A stretch of DNA of 64,000 nucleotides, from assembly GCA_963575745.1 (NCBI GenBank), contig CAUYUJ010014590.1, positions 292,001-356,000 of the forward strand, written 5' to 3'. Below the pieces are notes generated by a model. That model made no database searches. It had not been told where the DNA came from and saw nothing but the letters and a program-made list of their open reading frames with translations. Position 1 is the first letter of the stretch. Each line of letters begins with the position of its first letter. Origin of the DNA: Prorocentrum cordatum (Eukaryota > Sar > Dinophyceae > Prorocentrales > Prorocentraceae). A program made the translations under genes and the position numbers. Of the stretch, positions 2,563 through 61,612 are shown one piece after another.

Positions 2563-2937
2563 CTTCGACTTCCAAGAGGCTCGGCAACAAAACAATGAAG
2601 AGCCTGGTCAAGAGCTTTCGCAATATACTTGTATTGTATATTCCTAGCAGGTCTGGCTAATAATTACTTAGCAGTGCGAGCTAAGGGTTTTGCTAATTAT
2701 TCAGCTTTGACTTATACGGTATCTAGCTTGAGGTCTTACAAGCAAGATATCATACCATACTTGTACTGGGGCTCGATGAGATCTTGAAGAACCATGTCTG
2801 GGTTTGCTAGGGACTCAGTAAATAAGCTAAGTACTTGCAAGCGCCCTGGACCGCCCATGTGGGGCCATCCGGGCCTCTTGAGGAGGGAGGGTGCGAAGGC
2901 CTCGTTGGGAATCCGTGAGACCCCTGGGCCAGGGACG

Positions 2938-31929: not shown

Positions 31930-33917
31930 GAGCACGATTAGGCCACATATTCCAGAACATCGAATTTTCAGGACGACGCGACACTTCTGCAAATCTACAC
32001 TCTGTGAAAGCCGGTCCACTGCTTGTACAATATTTCGCCTCGAGAGCCTGCATGCATGTCAAATGCAAGCGCCGGGAGAGGGGGAGGGGAGGGGAGGATG
32101 GGGGCGAGAAGGTAGCGAGAGAGACAGAGGCTAACTGCATTACTTGTCGAGTATTCTGTTTAGGCCTCCCACGTCTTCGCCCGAAAACCCACCTTCGCGG
32201 CTCATGCGATCCAGGCTCGCAGGTTAGAGCCCTAAGGAAGCTGTTGTGCGGAAGCGCGGCACTGGTATTGAACAGCCTTACCTGCTTCTCAGCCAGGAGA
32301 ACTCTTAAAGGCGCCTGTCCTGCCTTCTGGAAGATGTCGTTGTTTGATACTCTTGAAACGAAGGAACAGGGTATCAAAGGAATTCGACGAAGGCAACGGG
32401 CATGGAAGCCATCCAAGCGGCGTTTGTCCGCCTTCAATAACCTGATGGGATCAATGTTTTGCACAAGTTTTTGGGGCACACTTGCGCTGCACAGCTCTAT
32501 CTTTCTATGTCTGGTAATGTCGGCGTGCGACCAGCAACGCTCCATGGCTTTGAACATACCCTTTGCCTCACCGATTCGTCGATACACTTCTGGCTGCGCT
32601 GCCCAATTTGCTGTAAAAAGCCCTCCGAGAGTTGTTGTCTGCTCAACTGCTGTTACCGATCTCCCAGACGTAGCGTAGATAACGCAATCGTGTTAGATTC
32701 GCAGGGCAATGGTTTTGCTCCAGTTAAGTTCCAACCCATAAGGTGCTCCCTTTTTGATGACCGTGCTCAACAGTAGCTGCAGTTTGTTTGTGTCGCTGCT
32801 GACAAGCATGATATCATCAGCGTGTAATAAGTTTGTGGTAGCAATAAACTGCGATTCTTGGACGCCCTGGCTTGCTGCTTCCATCTTCTGGTCGATGCCG
32901 TGGGACATTACATATTGCACAATCATGCACAGATAAGGCGAAAGCGGACAGCCTTGAGTAATCCTTGTTTTCTGGCACCTTGTCGAGGAATATCCAGCCT
33001 TGCTGTTTTGGAAGAAACGTCGTTGTTTGTGTTCTTGGCAATGAAAAGGACCATCCTGGCGGAGATTCCACATCGGCGGAGAGCCTTTATCAGCTCATCG
33101 TGTTCGATAATGTCGAATGCTTTCGCCCAGTCCAGAAGTATTTCAGTGAATCCAGGAGAAGAACTCATGCAGGCTGCGTCTACCATTCTGCGCATGATTG
33201 CAATAGTTTGAATAGTGTTTCGGCCAGGCCGGAAGCCAAATTGGGCTTTTACACCACATTGTGGTTTTCGCATCCGCTCTTCCGCCTCTCCATTCTGCAA
33301 TCGTTTTTGGATCATGGACGCCACAATTTTGTATGCCACGGGTAGTAAAGCTATTGGCCAGCAGTTTTTTGGTAAGCTCGCGCCCCTCTTTTTTGTTTAG
33401 CACTGTTACACACGCCGTCTTCCAATAGGTTGGCAAATCGATTAAGCAATTGCTCCAACTCTTCCCCATCTTGCAAAATAGGATTCCCAAGTTCAGGCGG
33501 TATTTCCTCAGCGTTTGCTGCTTTCCCAAGTTGAAGGTTTTTCAAAGCACCACTGAGTTCTTCAATTGTATAGGCGCTTGTTTTGACAGGCAAATCGTTT
33601 TCCAATGTAGTTTTGGTAGTAGGGCCAGCATGTGAATTCGTGATCTTCCACTGCGTCACCACCCACGTTGCTGTCCACCATGTTACATGCAGGGTCTTTG
33701 ATTTGATTTGGTCGTTTGGCGGCCTCTTTCCTGAGCTGCCGGACAGCATGCCAAGACACATTCTGCAGTTTTTCTTCAGCCAGATTTGTTTGTATTTCTG
33801 GATTGATTTGCGGATCTTTTTTTCCGATCCTAAACCATCAGCAGTTTGCAGGTTGGTTATAACATTTCTTGCATAATGATTGCCCGTGCGCATGTGGCGG
33901 AATCGTATGAACCCCAT
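31930..33917 (-). pseudogene. Decayed LINE reverse transcriptase, copy a2
   Basis: Minus-strand fragments are in order but in shifted frames. An RT entry region TIEELSGALKNLQLGKA lies near 33,560, FGFRPGRNT near 33,235, motif A LLDWAKAFD near 33,132, motif B TQGCPLSPYL near 32,950 and motif C LLHADD near 32,810-32,825. Motif C has both Asp, with His before Ala-Asp-Asp. LELNWSKT follows. The C-terminal part (GFHARCLRRIP, SRVSN, then FGRRRGRPK) ends near 31,930. All RT Asp are present, but at least two frameshifts (near 33,400 and 33,020) and one between 32,690 and 32,590 break it. The C-terminal phrases match the plus-strand LINE at 6.1-8.5 kb. The endonuclease part is missing, so this is a 5'-truncated copy. 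Confidence 0.87.
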
Positions 33918-54205: not shown

Positions 54206-54429
54206 GGAACGTGGTTCGATACCAGGGGTGCGTCGTCGTTTTATTGGCAATGTATGTCCGATTGCAGGTCGATGCGGCGTTCTCGGAGCTGGCCCCCCGT
54301 GTTATTGCCCTTTGCACCCTATGATGACCGACTGCGGGCACCTTGGCTCAAGCTTCGAGGTTTCAGTCTTGACCCGCACACGCAATCTATATTGGAGCTG
54401 CGTAAACTGCTCTTGCGCAGCTTGCCAGG

Positions 54430-55591
54430 ATGGCGGCAACCAGGAAAGCACCATGGAGCATATTCGTGGCAATGCTTCCTGTCCAGGGGGTTCCTGCCGC
54501 GATTTCCATGATGGTGCGAGAGCGCATCCACAACGACACCCACAATGACACCCACGACCTTTACAACAGCTCGCGCACGGGTGCCCAGATGGCATCGTGC
54601 AGTTGGAGCCAAGGTTCTGCAAGTGGGTGGGCCGCTGAGCCACATTGCCATTATGCTAACTATAACCCTACATGCAATTCTGCGAACAATGGCAAATACT
54701 ATTATGGCAACCCCTGGGATACAGTCGGCGGGTACGTCACGAGCTTGGCTGGCTGCAGTGGCGGTTGGTTTTATCATGGCAGCAAGTCTTACGACCGGAT
54801 ATTCACTTGCAATTGCCAGACGACGCCATCTCCAACCTCGTACCCGACGCCCTACCCGACGCCTTACCCAACGCCCTACCCGACGCCTTACCCAACGCCC
54901 TACCCCACGCCGAAACCCACGCCGTACCCGACGCCCTACCCGACGTCATACCCGACGCCCTTCCCAACTCCGTACCCGACGGCCTTCCCAACGCCGTACC
55001 CGACGTCATACCCGACGCCCTTCCCGACGCCCTTCCCGACGGCGTACCCGACGCCCTTCCCGACGCTCTTTCCGACGCCCTTCCCGACGCCCAGCCCGAC
55101 TCCCAGCCCGACGTATCCTCTGGGCTGGCCGACGCCACACCCGACGTTTCCTCCTGGATCTCCCATGGCGGGTGGAGCCGGCGGAGGCGTGGCTGCCACT
55201 GGTGACCCCCATCTTCAAAACGTTCATGGTGAGCGGTTCGATTTGATGCAGGCAGGCAGGCATGTCCTGATACAGATCCCTCGTGGAATGAGCGCTGCAG
55301 AAGCACTGCTTGTCGTACAAGCCGATGCGAGCCGATTGGGTGGACATTGTGTTGATATGTTCTTCCAGCACGTGAACGTTACCGGCAATTGGGCAGAAGC
55401 CCAACAAGTTGGGGGGTACCATTACAGCGCGTCGCAGAAACCGAACGAGATTCCGCATTGGGTTGCGCTTGGCCCGGTTCAGCTGAAAGTGGTGCATGGG
55501 CAAACTGACGCCGGCATCGTGTACCTGAACGTTTACGTGAAGCACTTGGGGCGGGCAGGGTTTGCCGTCGGAGGCCTGCGGGGTGAAGATG
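54430..55591 (+). CDS. Secreted-type protein: Cys-rich region, Pro/Thr repeats, GDPHL (VWD-like) domain
   Basis: The best host gene candidate in the window. From the ATG at 54,430, residues 1-30 are hydrophobic in part ([20 protein letters not shown]) and could be a signal or internal sequence. Residues 55-130 carry six Cys (57, 73, 82, 109, 127, 129) with Tyr/Asn/Gly-rich spacing. Residues 133-243 are PYPT/PFPT repeats encoded by a 12-bp TACCCGACGCCC repeat. Residues 258-387 form a compact domain opening with [15 protein letters not shown], then [20 protein letters not shown] and a Gly-rich end [15 protein letters not shown] near the start is the hallmark of von Willebrand D-type domains; similar GDPHL proteins are common in dinoflagellates, and the role is probably extracellular, which is inference. 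After residue 387 the frame runs into repeat C and microsatellites and stays open to 56,334, so the natural 3' end is lost or spliced. The start is provisional. Confidence 0.6.
54835..55125 (+). repeat. 12-bp coding repeat (Tyr/Phe-Pro-Thr-Pro)
   Basis: TACCCGACGCCC and TTCCCGACGCCC units in frame with the GDPHL gene encode PYPT/PFPT. The period is a multiple of three, unlike the satellites elsewhere, which fits a translated linker. Confidence 0.9.
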
Positions 55592-55669
55592 GCCCATCTG
55601 GGGCCACCCAAAGGGGCCGCCCCCGGCCAGCCCCCAGCGTCAGGGGCGACGATGGGGGGGGGGATCGGC

Positions 55670-55740
55670 ACAGGGCGGACGCGCCGCCCCCCAACCTGCC
55701 CAGTGATCGCCGACAGGGGCCCGAGAGCCCCAACCTGCCC
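55670..55740 (+). repeat. Dispersed repeat C, copy 3
   Basis: GGGCGGACGCGCCGCCCCCC, then GCCCAGTGATCGCCGACAGG and GGCCCGAGAGCCC, similar to 54,135-54,205. It lies directly after the last recognisable residues of the GDPHL domain. Confidence 0.7.
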
Positions 55741-55837
55741 GGGAAGGTGCGGATGCGCTGTCGGAGGCCCAATCGCCTCCTTCAGGGCGTGGCCCCTCAC
55801 AGGGGCCTGGAGACAGCCCTGCCGGGGGCTCGAAGAA

Positions 55838-55880
55838 GAAGAAGAAGAAGAAGAAGAAAAAGAGGAAGAAGAAGAAGCAA
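55838..55880. repeat. (GAA)n microsatellite
   Basis: A GAA run preceding element E copy 2, in the position of the TTC tract at 30,346 (reverse orientation). Confidence 0.95.
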
Positions 55881-56040
55881 CCATTTAAACATGATAAACT
55901 TTTGGAGTTCCGCGCAGATTTCTTGCATCCCCGGCGGCGCCTCCGGCGCCACCCCTGGCGCGCTCCGCGCGCCAGCGGCGGGAGGTCCAGCGCGGATCCA
56001 AGAAATCAGGGTGGAGCGCCATAAGCTTATGCTTCTGTGT
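55881..56040 (+). repeat. Dispersed element E, copy 2
   Basis: AAACTTTTGGAGTTCCGCGC then AGATTTC, a GGCGCGCCAGC-like palindromic centre, and CCAGCGCGGATCCAAGAAAT then C, ending GCGCCATAAGCTTATG. It is homologous to 30,218-30,345 on the minus strand, with the GAA tract at the same end. Confidence 0.78.
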
Positions 56041-56080
56041 TCTTGGTCTTCTCACAGGGGCGACGCAGCCAAACGGTTTT

Positions 56081-56283
56081 TGGAGGAGGAGGAGGAGGAG
56101 GAGGAGGAGGAGGAGGAGGAGGAGGAGGAGAGGAGGGGAGGAGGAGGAGGGAGGGGGAGGAGGAGGAGGAGGAGGAGGAGGAGGAGGAGGAGGAGGAGGA
56201 GGAGGAGGAGGAGGAGGGAGGAGGAGGAGGAGGGAGGAGGAGGAGGAGGAGGAGGAGGAGGAGGAGGAGGAGGAGGAGGAGGA
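56081..56283. repeat. (GGA)n microsatellite
   Basis: About 200 bp of GAG/GGA with few interruptions. Confidence 0.97.
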
Positions 56284-56334
56284 GGTCCGGTCCGGTCCGA
56301 CACACTCGAAGTCAGCAAGCCGATCGATATGTAG

Positions 56335-56773
56335 AGGAATATGCAGTGCCGCGATAAAGTATCGCCAATCAAAGCTTGCCAACGTGAGCGACGCGACCCG
56401 TTATGTAGACAGGTCAAAGCCCCACACCAGCAGCGGGACGCACCGACGTGGCGTCTCCGCTGGGCCTGGGTCGCGGCAGTGCTGAATCTGCCCCAGCTGG
56501 CCGCCCTCACAAGACATCGCGCGTCAATGGAAGAAGGGGGCGGAGTGAAGCAGGGGCAGGACAGCGCCGCACCGTGAGCACGCTCGCTGCATTCGTCGAC
56601 AAGGGCGTACAACTGGCGAGCATAGAAATTGCGCCAGCATGCGATTACCAAGTGTGCGTTGCGACACTTCGGCCGCATTTCAAATGCCCGCCGAGCACGG
56701 GAACTAAAATCTGGCGGGGCATTCGTCAGCAGGCGGCCGGCGGCCGCCAAGACAATCCTGTGCCCAGCCCAGA
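56335..56773. other. Unassigned sequence
   Basis: No motif is seen in the open frames on either strand. It lies between two GGA tracts. Confidence 0.35.
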
Positions 56774-56827
56774 GGAAGGAGAGGAGGAGGAGGAGGAGGA
56801 GGAGGAGGAGGAGGAGGAGGAGGAGGC
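56774..56827. repeat. (GGA)n microsatellite at the 3' end of the LINE
   Basis: A pure GGA run about 27 bp beyond the last stop codon of the minus-strand reading frame ending at 56,854. On the element's strand it is a (TCC)n tail. Confidence 0.95.
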
Positions 56828-56853
56828 AAGGGGGAAAGCAATGTGCCGCCGGG

Positions 56854-57490
56854 TCACTGCTTCATCCGCTTAATGCGGGCCTGCAGCTTCCGCTCCCGCT
56901 TCGACGCTGGCGCTGACCCCAGCACCTCCTCGCCCCCGGCCTGCATCCACACGCGAACGATGATCTCCACCACTGCCTGACCAAGGGATCCCCCCCTCCA
57001 CGAGGCGGAACCAGAAACGGTGGCCCTTGTCGCGCGTCTCGTAGGCCCTGAACTCCAGCACCTCCCTCCCCAGCTTCTTGGGCACGTCGTACTTCGTCAG
57101 GAATTCTTCGATCTTCTGGTACTCGGGCGGTTTCGCCCCCATCTCCTCCGCGGAAAAGTGCGTCTGCCCGATGAGCGCTGCGGCAATCAGCGCGTGGTGG
57201 CAAGGCACTCCGTGCCCGTGGCCCCGTTGGCCCCGGGCCTTCTTCTCGTACTCGCCCACCGCCCCGCGCATCCTGTCGTAGAACGCCTCGCCCACCTCCC
57301 CCGGCACCAGGCACGTCTGGTAGAGCGCCGCTGCGTGGTTCCGCGACTCCGCCGCCACGGACGCCAGGAGAATCAGCTCGTCCCTCTCCGAGGCCGCGTC
57401 GGGCTCCTCGGTCTCGGTCATCGCAGACTTCGCGGCGCTCCCCTCCTTCTCCTTCGGCTTCGGCAGGAAGTTCTTGTAGGCCTCGCTCAT
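56854..57490 (-). pseudogene. Frameshifted reading frame, possible C-terminal part of the LINE
   Basis: From the ATG at 57,490 the minus-strand frame gives MSEAYKNFLPKPKEKEG, an acidic DELILLASVAAESRNHAAAL helix-like stretch, and later EEFLTKYDVPKKLGREVLEF and GHRFWFRLVEGG. Near 56,990-56,996 a run of seven C shifts the frame. In the next frame AVVEIIVRVWMQAG and KRERELQARIKRMKQ continue to a TGA at 56,854, and composition stays protein-like across the break. It follows the zinc-finger part of the LINE directly, so it may be the end of that polyprotein after another frameshift, or an independent gene. I recognise no family. Confidence 0.45.
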
Positions 57491-57609
57491 CGGGACGTGC
57501 GCGTGCCGGGGCAGGAGCAGAGTGCAGCCGCTCGCGAGCGGCGATTCGGGCACACAGGGCTTCAAGAGCCGGGATAAGCGTGGAAGATACAGTCGTGCGA
57601 GAAGCTCTC

Positions 57610-60600
57610 ACTGAGCCAAGATGGACTACACGGATATGGCGTTGAAGTAATGGTAGCGTCGTAAAAACCTTTGCGTCACAGATGGGGCACCCAAGGTAGC
57701 CCGGAATTTCCACATCGTGGCGAAAGACACTCCCAGACCCAGAGCAGAACCCTCGGCGAATAGATGCCTCCAGATGCTCGCGGGCGTTCGGCTGGGTAGA
57801 AAAAATTGACATGCACACGCAACACTGGTTTGTAACAGTGGCCCTTGCGCCCAGAGCAATATCGCCATGACCCGGAAGACGACTTTGATTTTGATGCGCA
57901 CGGAGTGCCCCGAGCAACAGAAAACTGCGGCCGCAGCGCTCCGTCTCGAGACCGGGCAGGTTGCAAACGAAAGACGGTGCCTCCACGCGATCAGCGGCAC
58001 GATCCTGACGAGGGGCGGGTGCCACGTACCCTGGCGGCGGAATGGCCACGGTGCGAGTGCGTGCACGAAGAACGCGAGGATCAATGCCTTGAACCCGTGC
58101 GGCAACATCCTCGTCGAAAAATACATGGGCAGGATAACGACAACAAAGTGCAGCGACATCCTCATAATCTGGATGGCAAGATAATGCATCAAAGTCCTCG
58201 GAAGCCTGTCTGGCCCATGGGTTCGCGTCCGGAAGCAGAAGGCCCCGGGGGTCAAGCACGCGCCGGCCGTCAATCTCCCCGAATATTGTCAAGATCGATT
58301 GCACAAGCCTGCCAGGGGTGGAACACATGACCTGGTACCACCGTATGCGCTCAATCCTAAGCTCGACCTCGGCCTCGGAGAACTTGAGGGCCCAGCGAAC
58401 GTCCTTGGTGGAAGGCGCAACGGGATGGCCTTGGGAACGCTGCTGGAGACGCGCCATCAAGACACGACGGCCCATGTCGCTCCAAGCGTCATCGATCATG
58501 CGAAGGTCAGTGCGTGAAGGGACATAAGCGGCAGCACCAGAAGTAGTAGCACCGATCACCATGGCCCGGAAGGCAAGGACAGTAAACTCACGGGTAGAAT
58601 GCGCCCAGAATCGCTTAAACCAGCCAAAGTTGCGCCGGGCAGCCTCGATGTTCTTCGCACGTAGGGTACTGAGGTTGCACCGCATATTTCGCCAACCACC
58701 CAAATGCCTAGCAGCAGAAACGACCCGTCCAGGAAAACCACAAGGACCAGAATAAACTCGACGAAGAGCGCCCTGAGAACCGGGGCCAACAAAGTTGACG
58801 ACGACCTCGCTTTTGCCCCTGTGCTGCACGATCAAAGGGGCGCCGGTAGAGTTCAAGAGAGCCTGGTCCAGTCGCTCGGAAGCAAGACGGCACCGACACA
58901 GAGCTGTAGGGAACGAGTCGGCCACCAGCGTAGTCTTGGCATCGTCGGCAAAAGTTGAGGTCCCGACCTCCGCCTGGCGCGCAACGCCACAAAGCTCCAG
59001 CGACGAAATAATGCGGAGCTCGGCGAGGCTGTTCACATTCCGGTCGATCTTGGGATGGAAGACGCCGAGAAATTACTTCGGCCCAGCGAGGTGCCCCATC
59101 CGAACACCGGAGCCAATCAAGTACCACGTCTGTGTTCCGTCGGCGGTGTCAGCGCGGACCAAAGCGCACTCCAGCTCGTTGAGGAAAATCTCGCGCACGA
59201 GCGGGCAAGAATCGAAGGCCCCCTGAATGTGCGATTCAAGCTCGGACGTGTGAGGGCAACAGAAAGCGTTGCGCATGTCAAAGAACAGCTCGGACGTGCC
59301 ACGGCCCATGGATTGCAAGCGAAAGGCAAGACACGTTGATGCGGCAATGGACTCCTCCCTTCGACGGCAGCGGGAATAGCCAGTAGCGTAATCTCTATCC
59401 AAAAAATGAGCCACGGGCCCACCACATCGCCATGTAAGCACCAGGCAGAGCGCAAAAAAGATGAAGACCCCGTACCGCGTCCCAGCCAGTGGCCCCATCT
59501 TTTTTTGGTATCTCGACTAACCAAGACGAATGCCAGCGAAGTGGAGCTTGTCGACGAAATCGGACCAGGGCGAGTAAGAGTAAAGACGCCATTTCAATCC
59601 AAGTTGATTCAGAATTCTCGGCACGATATCCCAAACCAGAGCCACGAGACGTAGATACCTGTGGGGAGAAAAGCATCCGCAGAAGTTCATTGGGGATCCC
59701 CCATGGCGGCACGCTGCGGCGATAGGCCGCACGAGGAACCTTCTTTCGAACATCGCGGAGATCCCGACGTGCAAGAGGGATCCAATCGCTGAAGACCCAG
59801 GGCCGTGAAGACCGTCGAGCAGACAGCACAGCATCGTAGTTGACGTCGCTGGCATTCAGACCACCCTCCTGCGCCGGAAGCCGGAGGCCATTCCCTTCCT
59901 CCTGGCTTGTTGCACGAAAATGTGGAACCTGGCGAAAACGACGTCGACGCGGCCCCTCCCCCTGGCCAGCTAAACGAAAGGATAACGTCCAAGCAGTGGC
60001 AAAGTCCCTCCGTTCCCAAGCAGCCTGGCAATCTTCCTCGAGTACCCGACGTCGGTGACGTGCGCCCTCCTTGAGCGTCTTGCGGGTCGCCGTGGAACTA
60101 CGACGCAGCGCGCCCAGGCGAACGATAGCGGCAAGGCTGGACGCGGCGCGACACACGCACAGGATAGACGCCGCGATGACCCAAGGTTGAACGAGCCGAC
60201 GACACTGAAGAACATCCTGACAACCTGCAGGAACGGGGATAGCGAGGACAGGACGGTGAGCAGCCTGAACGATCGCTGCTTTCTCAGGTTCCGTGAGATA
60301 AGGCTTCTTCCAAGCCACTGCTGTGTAGTGTGGAGCAGCCGAGCTCAGGATTATGTCGGTCAGCTTCTGGTCAACTTCGTCAGGGCCACTCTCCCGCGCA
60401 GCCAAAACGAGCGAGGGCCACTGCTCCTGAATCGTGTTTTCCACCGCCTGGACGAAGGACGTTTTGTGCGTACCTATTTTACACCCTCCCACAAGCGCCT
60501 CTTTGTGCCAGAACCGTCGAAGATGGTGCAAAGACCTCGGGATGCCTGTGAACGCCAAGTGCAGGTCGATTTCGCAGCGAAGAGGACGGTGATCGCGAGC

Positions 60601-61411
60601 AACAACATCAGGAATCAATTGTAAGACATCGCCCTCATCATGCCACACATCTGTACTCACCAACTTGGGAAAGACGTCGGAGCTCACAGCGATGAAATCG
60701 ACGATGCTGGTGCTGCCGTCGGGCCCGAAATACGTCGGCCCGCACTCCCGGAACGTGTTCACCAGACGCATCTCCGAGCCAAGCGCCGAGAGGAGCTGGT
60801 GGCCGTTGAAATTGCATTCCGCGGGATTGAAGCCGCCAAACGCAGGATGAACGAACGGACATCGCACACGAACGTTGTTCAGATCCCGGCCGTACTCCCA
60901 TCCCAAGTGCCCGTTGGCATCCAATAACCAGATCTCCGAAGTGCGGGAAGCCGAGCACAGTGCGCTGCTTCCCCAACCATGTGAACACCTGCTTCGAGAC
61001 GTAGCGGCCGTGGTCGGACTTAGGGCTGACAGGGGCGATAGCGACAAGTACGAGAAGGTCGAAATTGCGCCTGCGAATGTGGACCCCGCCGCAGCGACCT
61101 TGCAAGTGCTTGGGGGGAGTCAACACCTGAGCCCAAGAATTCTTTGGGAAATAGTCGCGCCGGAACAACAGCGTACATCCAGCCGATAAGTTCGTGCAAC
61201 TGCCCCGAGTAGTGGGAAACTTGAGTCCAACATACGAGGAGGAAGAAGAGGATCCAGTGACCTCGACGAACCCGGTGGAGAGACCGGCGAACCTGTCATG
61301 AGTCCCGCACAAGCCGATGATGTGGGCGCCAGCCATCACGTCGCATACATCCTGGAGGCGGCCATGCTGACGCATGCTGAGACAGTTGTACTGCACAAGA
61401 GTCAAAGCCAT
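57610..61411 (-). pseudogene. Near full-length LINE: endonuclease, RT, C2H2 fingers (lineage c), SL-led
   Basis: The minus-strand frame starts at the ATG at 61,409-61,411 (MALTLVQYNCLSM), about 105 nt after the tandem spliced leader. The endonuclease domain runs through GRLQDVCDVM, a frameshift near 60,940, LLDANGHLG, FNPAECNFNGHQLLSAL, SIVDFIAV and ARDHRPL near 60,580 (Asp-His dyad). The RT follows: VPPWGIPNELL near 59,700, EIPKKDG and GWDAVRG near 59,490, a frameshift near 59,450, motif A LFFDMRNAFC near 59,280, motif B GVRMGHLAGPK just before an in-frame TAA near 59,072, and motif C TFADDAK near 58,946. IERIRWYQ follows downstream. Three C2H2-like fingers occupy about 57,965-57,624 (C..C..H..H spacing, last one CPICDAKVF...HIRVVH). 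All RT Asp are kept, but two frameshifts and one stop inactivate it. Confidence 0.88.
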
Positions 61412-61515
61412 GGCAGCAAGCGAGCCCACGGGGGGCAAATGGCATGATACAGTATCAGAAAGGTCGTGAAGCGTTGAAGCGCCACCGGAGCATGCTGCGG
61501 CTTGGGCGCAAATTG
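61412..61515 (-). other. 5' leader of the SL-led LINE
   Basis: The 104 nt between the relict leader and the ATG contain two upstream ATGs, at about 61,490 (a 12-codon frame) and near 61,445 (out of frame). No in-frame coding extension is needed. Confidence 0.6.
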
Positions 61516-61551
61516 CTTGAGCCAAAATGGCTTGAGCCAAAATGGCTACGG
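61516..61551 (-). other. Tandem relict dinoflagellate spliced leader
   Basis: On the minus strand CCGTAGCCATTTTGGCTCAA plus G (61,551-61,531) is the 21-nt invariant part of the DinoSL. It is followed directly by CCATTTTGGCTCAAG (61,530-61,516), the same leader lacking its first bases up to CCGTAG. This is the product expected when the AG inside an inserted leader is reused as trans-splice acceptor. The next bases are CAATTTGC, not a GT donor, so it is not a spliced-leader RNA gene. Confidence 0.95.
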
Positions 61552-61554
61552 GCG

Positions 61555-61612
61555 GGAGGAGGAGGAGGAGGAGGAGGAGGAGGAGGAGGAGGAGGAGGAG
61601 GAGGAGGGGAGG
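61555..61612. repeat. (GGA)n microsatellite at the 5' end of the LINE
   Basis: A GGA run that begins 3-4 bp beyond the leader. It mirrors the GGA tract at the other end of the element (56,774-56,827). Confidence 0.95.

What the first reader, a model, noticed from the sequence alone, without database searches (positions are those of the whole stretch)
61412..61551. Tandem spliced leader at the 5' end of a LINE: a retroelement recycled through trans-splicing
The minus strand carries the full 21-nt DinoSL core followed by the exact 15-nt truncated leader, a short leader region, and the start of an endonuclease-RT polyprotein. It is known that dinoflagellate mRNAs receive this leader by trans-splicing and that retroposed genes keep relict leaders. 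Here the passenger is itself a LINE, so its own mRNA was apparently trans-spliced, reverse transcribed and integrated, then trans-spliced and integrated again. This would give a LINE lineage a mobile, host-supplied 5' end and acceptor site.
Basis: partly seen in the sequence, partly recalled or inferred. Interest (0 to 1): 0.9.

Follow-up and report, generated by a model that had tools for sequence, protein, structure and literature searches.

The report
LINEs tipped with the host's leader
In this dinoflagellate genome many jumping genes (LINEs) begin with the short leader that the host splices onto its messages, which suggests that their RNA borrows the host's leader before being copied back into DNA; the copy in the window carries two leaders in a row.

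Summary
In detail: on the minus strand the 21-nt DinoSL core (61551-61531) is followed by an exact truncated leader (61530-61516). The assembly (4.13 Gb; probably Prorocentrum cordatum, inferred) holds 14,218 copies of the 21-mer and 1,202 of the 36-nt pair; reversed controls 0. Of 60 stretches taken at listed leaders, 37 lead into a LINE endonuclease or RT in sense, 1 in antisense; Pfam agrees for several long frames. The window copy is a broken member of a divergent LINE family with four near copies whose frames are open. Two of these begin (CCT)n-TAGGAG-CAATTTGCG without a new leader. One has a full leader joined where those two read CACAG|CATGC. The window's pair is joined where they read GGAG|CAATTTGCG. 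Both junctions follow AG, as trans-splicing predicts. Leaders often abut microsatellites. Leader recycling of host mRNAs is known; LINEs as frequent genomic passengers I did not find in print.

The parts
61552..61610 (-). (CCT)n microsatellite directly 5' of the leader: insertion site and/or polypyrimidine tract
   Evidence: leaders lie in such tracts far above chance
61531..61551 (-). 21-nt DinoSL core (CCGTAG + 15-mer), newest leader
61516..61530 (-). truncated leader, cut exactly after the AG of CCGTAG
61501..61515 (-). CAATTTGCGCCCAAG: family's older 5' end, 11/15 to the leader; probably a decayed older leader
   Evidence: present without a new leader in L112 and L113
61412..61500 (-). LINE 5' untranslated region; contains the AG used as junction in sibling L114 (CAG|CATGC)
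56854..61411 (-). LINE reading frame: endonuclease-like, RT-like, C2H2-type fingers, C-terminal part ending RIKRMKQ; broken here, open in four near copies
59073..59075 (-). in-frame stop inside the RT-like part (one of several lesions)
56288..56853 (-). LINE 3' untranslated region; ends read in siblings share it up to GTCGGACCGGACC; contains an internal (CCT)n at 56828-56778
56080..56287 (-). (CCT)n-rich stretch directly 3' of the shared sequence, also in siblings L126 and L127; element tail or target cannot be told apart

Best explanation
LINE RNAs in this dinoflagellate behave like host pre-mRNAs. Some receive the 22-nt DinoSL by trans-splicing at an AG near their 5' end, and the leader-tipped RNA is copied into DNA, often into a (CCT)n/(AGG)n or other microsatellite, so that the leader becomes the genomic 5' end of the element. 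When such a copy is transcribed, the next leader can be joined at the AG inside the old leader (CCGTAG|CC), which stacks leader + 15-mer as in the window, or at an AG further 3', which replaces the old 5' end as in sibling L114. Shown: leader-LINE junctions at many sampled leaders, AG before both junctions in this family, stacking, microsatellite flanks. Inferred: that trans-splicing made the junctions, that a LINE's own RT did the copying, and that an upstream (CCT)n serves as polypyrimidine tract.
For: Genome counts: 15-mer 23,175 against 3 for the reversed control; 21-mer 14,218 against 0; 36-mer 1,202 against 0. Of 60 stretches at leaders, EN in 32 and RT in 29, either in 37, in sense; antisense EN 0, RT 1; at E<1e-6 either in 36, EN before RT in 19 of 19 that have both. 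Window control: 2 of 32 four-kb strand segments, this element itself not being matched by the profiles. Pfam: Exo_endo_phos in 13 and RVT_1 in 9 of 95 ORFs scanned, the remaining 65 families in 1 each. Both domains in L054, L061, L095 and L060; L060's are below Pfam's curated cut-offs. L054 is one 1,864-aa frame whose ATG follows the leader directly. RTs are divergent: median 30% identity over 73 pairs with a match. Stacked 3' copies in 10 of 37 LINE loci, null 31 of 12,000 places. 26 of 37 LINE leaders lie in extreme purine/pyrimidine tracts, against 413 of 18,000 random places. Siblings at 93% protein identity differ in leader state, both junctions after AG.
Against: Two near siblings lack a new leader, so trans-splicing seems not to be needed for mobility. 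6 of the 26 extreme flanks at LINE loci are purine-rich upstream and would make poor polypyrimidine tracts. No RNA evidence was available. The window's LINE gives no Pfam EN/RT match and only weak profile matches to the other LINEs. The 60 stretches come from 66 of 100 listed places, 58 of them from four contigs; a random-region control was not obtained. 23 of 60 stretches show no EN or RT; some are host genes.
Confidence: 0.8

Rival explanations
1. The leader was acquired once or a few times and is now copied as part of the element's DNA: transcription starts at the leader itself (its TTT(G) has been proposed as a promoter motif), without new trans-splicing in each cycle.
For: 27 of 37 LINE loci show no stacked 3' copy (133); the promoter idea is in PMC6050394 (passages).
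Against: Near copies of one family differ in leader state and junction; divergent LINEs share the exact 15-mer by which they were sampled; stacking at the AG; T at D in 19 of 21 full leaders on LINEs, as for a freshly copied RNA 5' end.
Confidence: 0.25
2. The LINEs target spliced-leader sequence, like NeSL/SLACS/CRE elements, and so sit next to leaders.
For: LINEs that target spliced leader exons are known (PMC4640811, passages).
Against: Upstream of many leaders lies a microsatellite, not an SL RNA gene; in the three extended elements where a downstream tract was reached it is of the same kind; a RuBisCO and a WD40 gene also follow leaders.
Confidence: 0.03
3. The pair in the window arose by slippage (tandem duplication of 15 bp) of a single leader, or by template switching at AG microhomology.
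For: The unit is flanked by AG on both sides; the sequence alone cannot tell. Relicts cut elsewhere (starting CTCAAG) are also reported (PMC12014239, passages).
Against: 1,202 exact 36-mers genome-wide; the same cut after nucleotide 7 at an AG is described for host genes (PMC3229502, passages).
Confidence: 0.08
4. An unrelated leader-tagged retrogene lies upstream and the LINE landed beside it by chance.
For: None found.
Against: The leader abuts the family's own 5' UTR at an AG of the siblings, with no foreign fragment between, in L114, L116, L117 and the window.
Confidence: 0.01

Closest known systems
DinoSL relicts / recycled cDNAs of dinoflagellates (Slamovits and Keeling 2008, seen only as cited; PMC3229502, PMC12014239, PMC7245778, passages)
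   Same: Full leader followed by leader truncated after nucleotide 7 at the AG, decaying 3'-wards; interpreted as trans-splicing, reverse transcription, reintegration.
   Different: In the passages seen the passengers are host genes, mostly known from transcripts; here the commonest recognisable passengers of sampled genomic leaders are LINEs, and leaderless siblings show the acceptor.
APE-type non-LTR retrotransposons (LINEs)
   Same: Endonuclease before reverse transcriptase, long frames.
   Different: 5' terminus is a host spliced leader; no poly(A) tail seen at the few 3' ends read.
Microsatellite-specific LINEs (e.g. Togen, some HERO; PMC4640811, passages)
   Same: Insertion in simple repeats.
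   Different: Repeats here are mixed (CCT, AGG, AT), and the endonuclease of the Pfam-positive elements is of the Exo_endo_phos type.
Trypanosomatid L1Tc/ingi with Pr77 (PMC8190864, passages)
   Same: LINEs in a trans-splicing host.
   Different: They carry their own promoter and make unspliced transcripts.
C. elegans Cer1 (PMC3315495, passages)
   Same: A retroelement mRNA can receive a spliced leader.
   Different: Gypsy/Ty3-related element; its 8-kb RNA was not trans-spliced at that site.

Membership tests
Recycled DinoSL-tagged retrocopy | Full leader at the genomic 5' end of an intron-free copy | tested here: met
   L054 open frame from the leader; absence of introns judged from open frames only
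Recycled DinoSL-tagged retrocopy | Relict truncated exactly at the acceptor AG | tested here: met
Recycled DinoSL-tagged retrocopy | Passenger mRNA carries a spliced leader in the cell | not testable with these tools
   no RNA data
LINE (non-LTR retrotransposon), leader-tipped set | Endonuclease of Exo_endo_phos type and RT, EN first | tested here: met
LINE (non-LTR retrotransposon), leader-tipped set | Absence of long terminal repeats | not tested
   no search for LTRs was run
LINE, window copy | EN and RT domains recognisable | tested here: inconclusive
   Pfam none; hhalign EN E 0.007, RT E 0.24; RT motifs NAF and FADD and EN motif DANGH read by eye (motifs recalled); homologue P0001 27% over 514 columns; 133 listed genome matches to the EN piece, many in open frames over 1,000 aa (136)
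LINE, window copy | Target-site duplication | not testable with these tools
   both flanks are (CCT)n, so a duplication cannot be delimited
Microsatellite-targeting LINE | 5' junctions in simple repeats far above background | tested here: met
Microsatellite-targeting LINE | Same repeat at the 3' junction | tested here: inconclusive
   L054, L060, L061 yes; L095, L078, L074 not reached; for L054 the tract could be internal, as the first tract in the window proved to be
SL-exon-targeting LINE (NeSL/SLACS/CRE) | Insertion inside an SL RNA gene | tested here: not met
   flanks read are mostly microsatellites; SL RNA gene bodies were not searched for beyond Rfam on the window
SL RNA gene | Leader followed by GT donor and an SL RNA body | tested here: not met
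   CC and CA follow; Rfam 0 matches

The most novel reading that the evidence does not exclude
Dinoflagellate LINEs as a whole use the host's trans-splicing as a 5'-end renewal system: each round can restore a perfect 22-nt 5' end, by replacement at a downstream AG or by stacking at the leader's own AG, while landing in (CCT)n can supply the polypyrimidine tract for the next round. The same leader-adapted LINE machinery would then be what writes leader-tagged host genes into the genome.
Probability: 0.45. Interest if true: 0.88.

Novelty: new variant of a known kind. Interest (0 to 1): 0.75.

Why it matters
Which element writes leader-tagged mRNAs back into dinoflagellate genomes is open (PMC6050394 calls the type unknown and favours Ty1/copia; PMC10235124 points to LINEs; passages). 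Here the commonest recognisable passengers behind sampled genomic leaders are LINEs themselves, some with long open frames, and leaderless and leader-bearing siblings show the acceptor sites directly. That makes the question testable with long-read RNA. Practically, DinoSL in genomic DNA should not be read as a mark of host retrogenes until LINEs are set aside.

Tried and rejected
Rejected or corrected on the way. (1) That 61515-61501 is simply a third relict: siblings L112 and L113 carry it without a new leader; I keep it as a probable older, decayed leader. (2) That the ORF at 57490-56854 is a host retrogene, from its GC3 of 0.92 and a leader-like site at 57629-57612: siblings carry the same C-terminal end and frames long enough to include it; the leader-like site overlaps a finger codon and is probably chance. 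(3) That (CCT)n at 56828-56778 is the 3' flank: siblings share the sequence beyond it; the shared part runs to about 56288. (4) A hidden frame of P0001 resembling that ORF: 10 of 60 shuffles score as high. (5) Single-sequence fold of the endonuclease: mean pLDDT 30.5, not used. (6) IMG/VR as a source of relatives: 37 stretches with the 15-mer, only L001 with CCGTAG before it, none tandem; no LINE relative. (7) GTDB contigs: no tandem pair, no relative of P0001. (8) Protein searches: 0, 1 and 0 hits. (9) Downstream tracts within the 4-kb stretches: same orientation 9, opposite 4, of 34, too weak to use.

Full report
What is there. The minus strand reads (CCT)n, then CCGTAG-CCATTTTGGCTCAAG-CCATTTTGGCTCAAG, then CAATTTGCGCCCAAG and 89 nt before the ATG at 61411. 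By chance the 21-mer is expected 2.5e-8 times in the window.

The genome. After eight unanswered tries the window's own assembly could be searched: 4,128,499,153 bases in 21,875 contigs; contig C1 is 3,562,531 bases. Assembly size, GC and longest scaffold (4.15 Gb, 59.7%, 3.56 Mb; PMC10666404, passages) fit Prorocentrum cordatum; this is an inference. The 15-mer occurs 11,634 + 11,541 times against 3 + 0 for the reversed pattern, the 21-mer 7,201 + 7,017 against 0, the 36-nt pair 622 + 580 against 0. In IMG/VR the 15-mer occurs in 37 stretches, only one of which has CCGTAG before it.

What follows the leaders. Of the 100 places listed I took the first 66, as 60 stretches, 58 of them on contigs C1-C4, with about 4 kb downstream; two of them overlap (L068, L069). 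They hold 62 leader sites, 31 with the full 21-mer. Pfam on 95 of the 171 downstream ORFs listed finds Exo_endo_phos in 13 and RVT_1 in 9; the other 65 families match one ORF each. L054, L061, L095 and L060 have both domains (L060 below the curated cut-offs); L078 has the endonuclease, also below its cut-off; L074 has no match; L082 is RuBisCO and L098 a WD40 protein, so host genes are among the passengers. Profiles seeded from these and iterated find EN in 32 and RT in 29 of 60 stretches in sense, 37 with either, against EN 0 and RT 1 antisense. At E<1e-6 the figure is 36, and EN precedes RT in 19 of 19 that have both. In the window 2 of 32 four-kb strand segments have such a match; the element under study is not matched. 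RT identities are low (median 30% over 73 pairs with a match, one pair at 70% or more), so this is not one burst of one family. L054 is a single frame of 1,864 aa whose ATG follows CAAG directly. L061 has an in-frame stop after 1,439 aa and L060 runs through several frames; L095 and L078 are open for 2,059 and 2,202 aa to the end of what was fetched.

Where they land. Of 31 full leaders 13 have (CCT)n and 5 (AGG)n within 12 nt upstream, against 2.15% of 24,000 random places. For LINE loci 26 of 37 flanks are extremely purine- or pyrimidine-rich, against 413 of 18,000 random places; pyrimidine to purine 20:6 (binomial p 0.009, 127). Of the 23 other loci 11 are so. Six elements were extended. 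In three a downstream tract of the same kind was reached (L054 CCT, L060 AGG, L061 AT); in three (L095, L078, L074) not. In the 4-kb stretches alone, same-orientation tracts lay downstream in 9 and opposite ones in 4 of 34 loci with an extreme flank, which is weak.

The window's family. The endonuclease piece finds 133 matches in the genome (132 of 3,743 first-look candidates were scored, so a lower bound); four have 93% identity and open frames of 1,631, 1,997, 1,746 and 1,533 aa, with no stop inside the match. I read the 5' ends of 10 of these matches. L112 and L113 begin (CCT)n-TAGGAG|CAATTTGCGCCCAAGCCACAG|CATGC, with no new leader. L114 has (CCT)n-TCCGTAGCCATTTTGGCTCAAG joined exactly at |CATGC. 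L116 and L117, like the window, have leader + 15-mer joined exactly at |CAATTTGCG. L115 is truncated, with a CCT-rich flank. L121 has a 14/15 leader. L118, L119 and L120 have no exact one; L120 reads CCGAGGCAATCTTGCGTCCAAG at that place, which by eye looks like a decayed leader although its ungapped match there is only 9 of 15. The two junctions follow GGAG and CACAG in the siblings; with 3 AG among 107 positions, both falling after AG by chance is about 8e-4. This is what trans-splicing of leaderless transcripts at alternative acceptors would leave. The window, L116 and L117 share their upstream flank (113 identities, 2 mismatches, 10 gap positions), so they look like DNA-level duplicates of one insertion; the flanks of L112, L113 and L114 do not align with it in that way. 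At the 3' end the four near copies share the stop, an internal (CCT)n and the sequence beyond it. In the two siblings read further, the shared part runs to GTCGGACCGGACC followed by (CCT)n, as in the window. The element is therefore about 61551-56288; whether that last (CCT)n is tail or target cannot be told.

Is the window copy a LINE? Pfam gives nothing for EN or RT in the broken pieces. Support comes from motifs read by eye (recalled), a 27%-identical homologue, weak profile matches and the long open frames of its siblings.

How many rounds. Leader + truncated leader needs two trans-splicing events under the known scheme; if CAATTTGCGCCCAAG is an older leader, three. Stacking is not peculiar to this locus: 10 of 37 LINE loci and 4 of 23 others have a further copy 3' of the first, against a null of 31 in 12,000 places; counted on either side with another threshold it is also 10 and 5 (113). 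Since leaderless siblings also moved, the leader seems optional.

Print. Leader recycling, tandem relicts and their AG truncation are described (PMC3229502, PMC6050394, PMC7245778, PMC12014239; passages, 17, 16, 58, 20). Leaders near endogenous viral elements, with LINEs suspected as the agent, are described (PMC10235124, passages). In searches and the passages opened from them I found no report of LINEs carrying genomic DinoSL at their 5' ends. Most subscription papers are not held, I read no paper whole, and the P. cordatum annotation removed transposon-bearing gene models (PMC10666404, passages).

Noticed in passing
L001 (IMG/VR 3300045993_001077), 2746-2766 and 2893-2913, minus strand: A contig that looks AT-rich and giant-virus-like, with a Glyco_transf_41 protein, holds two exact 21-nt DinoSL copies in one intergenic region, the nearer one ahead of a 254-aa ORF (12, 23, 27, 74): perhaps a dinoflagellate cDNA captured by a virus, or leader mimicry.
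   Followed up: partly
window 15,377 and about 33,000-33,400, minus strand: Further places match the RT profile (E 4e-44; 6e-6 and 1e-4) with no leader of 12/15 or better within 6 kb upstream.
   Followed up: partly
window contig C13741:367885-368781: A second copy of the same element about 14.5 kb from the window's copy with the same upstream flank, apparently a local DNA duplication; C1005 holds a third.
   Followed up: partly
L074 downstream of its leader: An exact full leader is followed by a decayed full leader (18 of 22), stacking without truncation, as if an acceptor upstream of the old leader had been used.
   Followed up: no
window 54406-56334, plus strand: Open frame with PT-rich repeats and a [16 protein letters not shown] stretch, no Pfam match; recalled as a type common in dinoflagellates.
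   Followed up: no
ORFs just behind leaders in L047, L049, L060, L064, L077, L081, L087, L103: Several leader-tipped elements seem to start with a Cys-rich finger protein of RanBP2-like look (by eye; likeness recalled).
   Followed up: no
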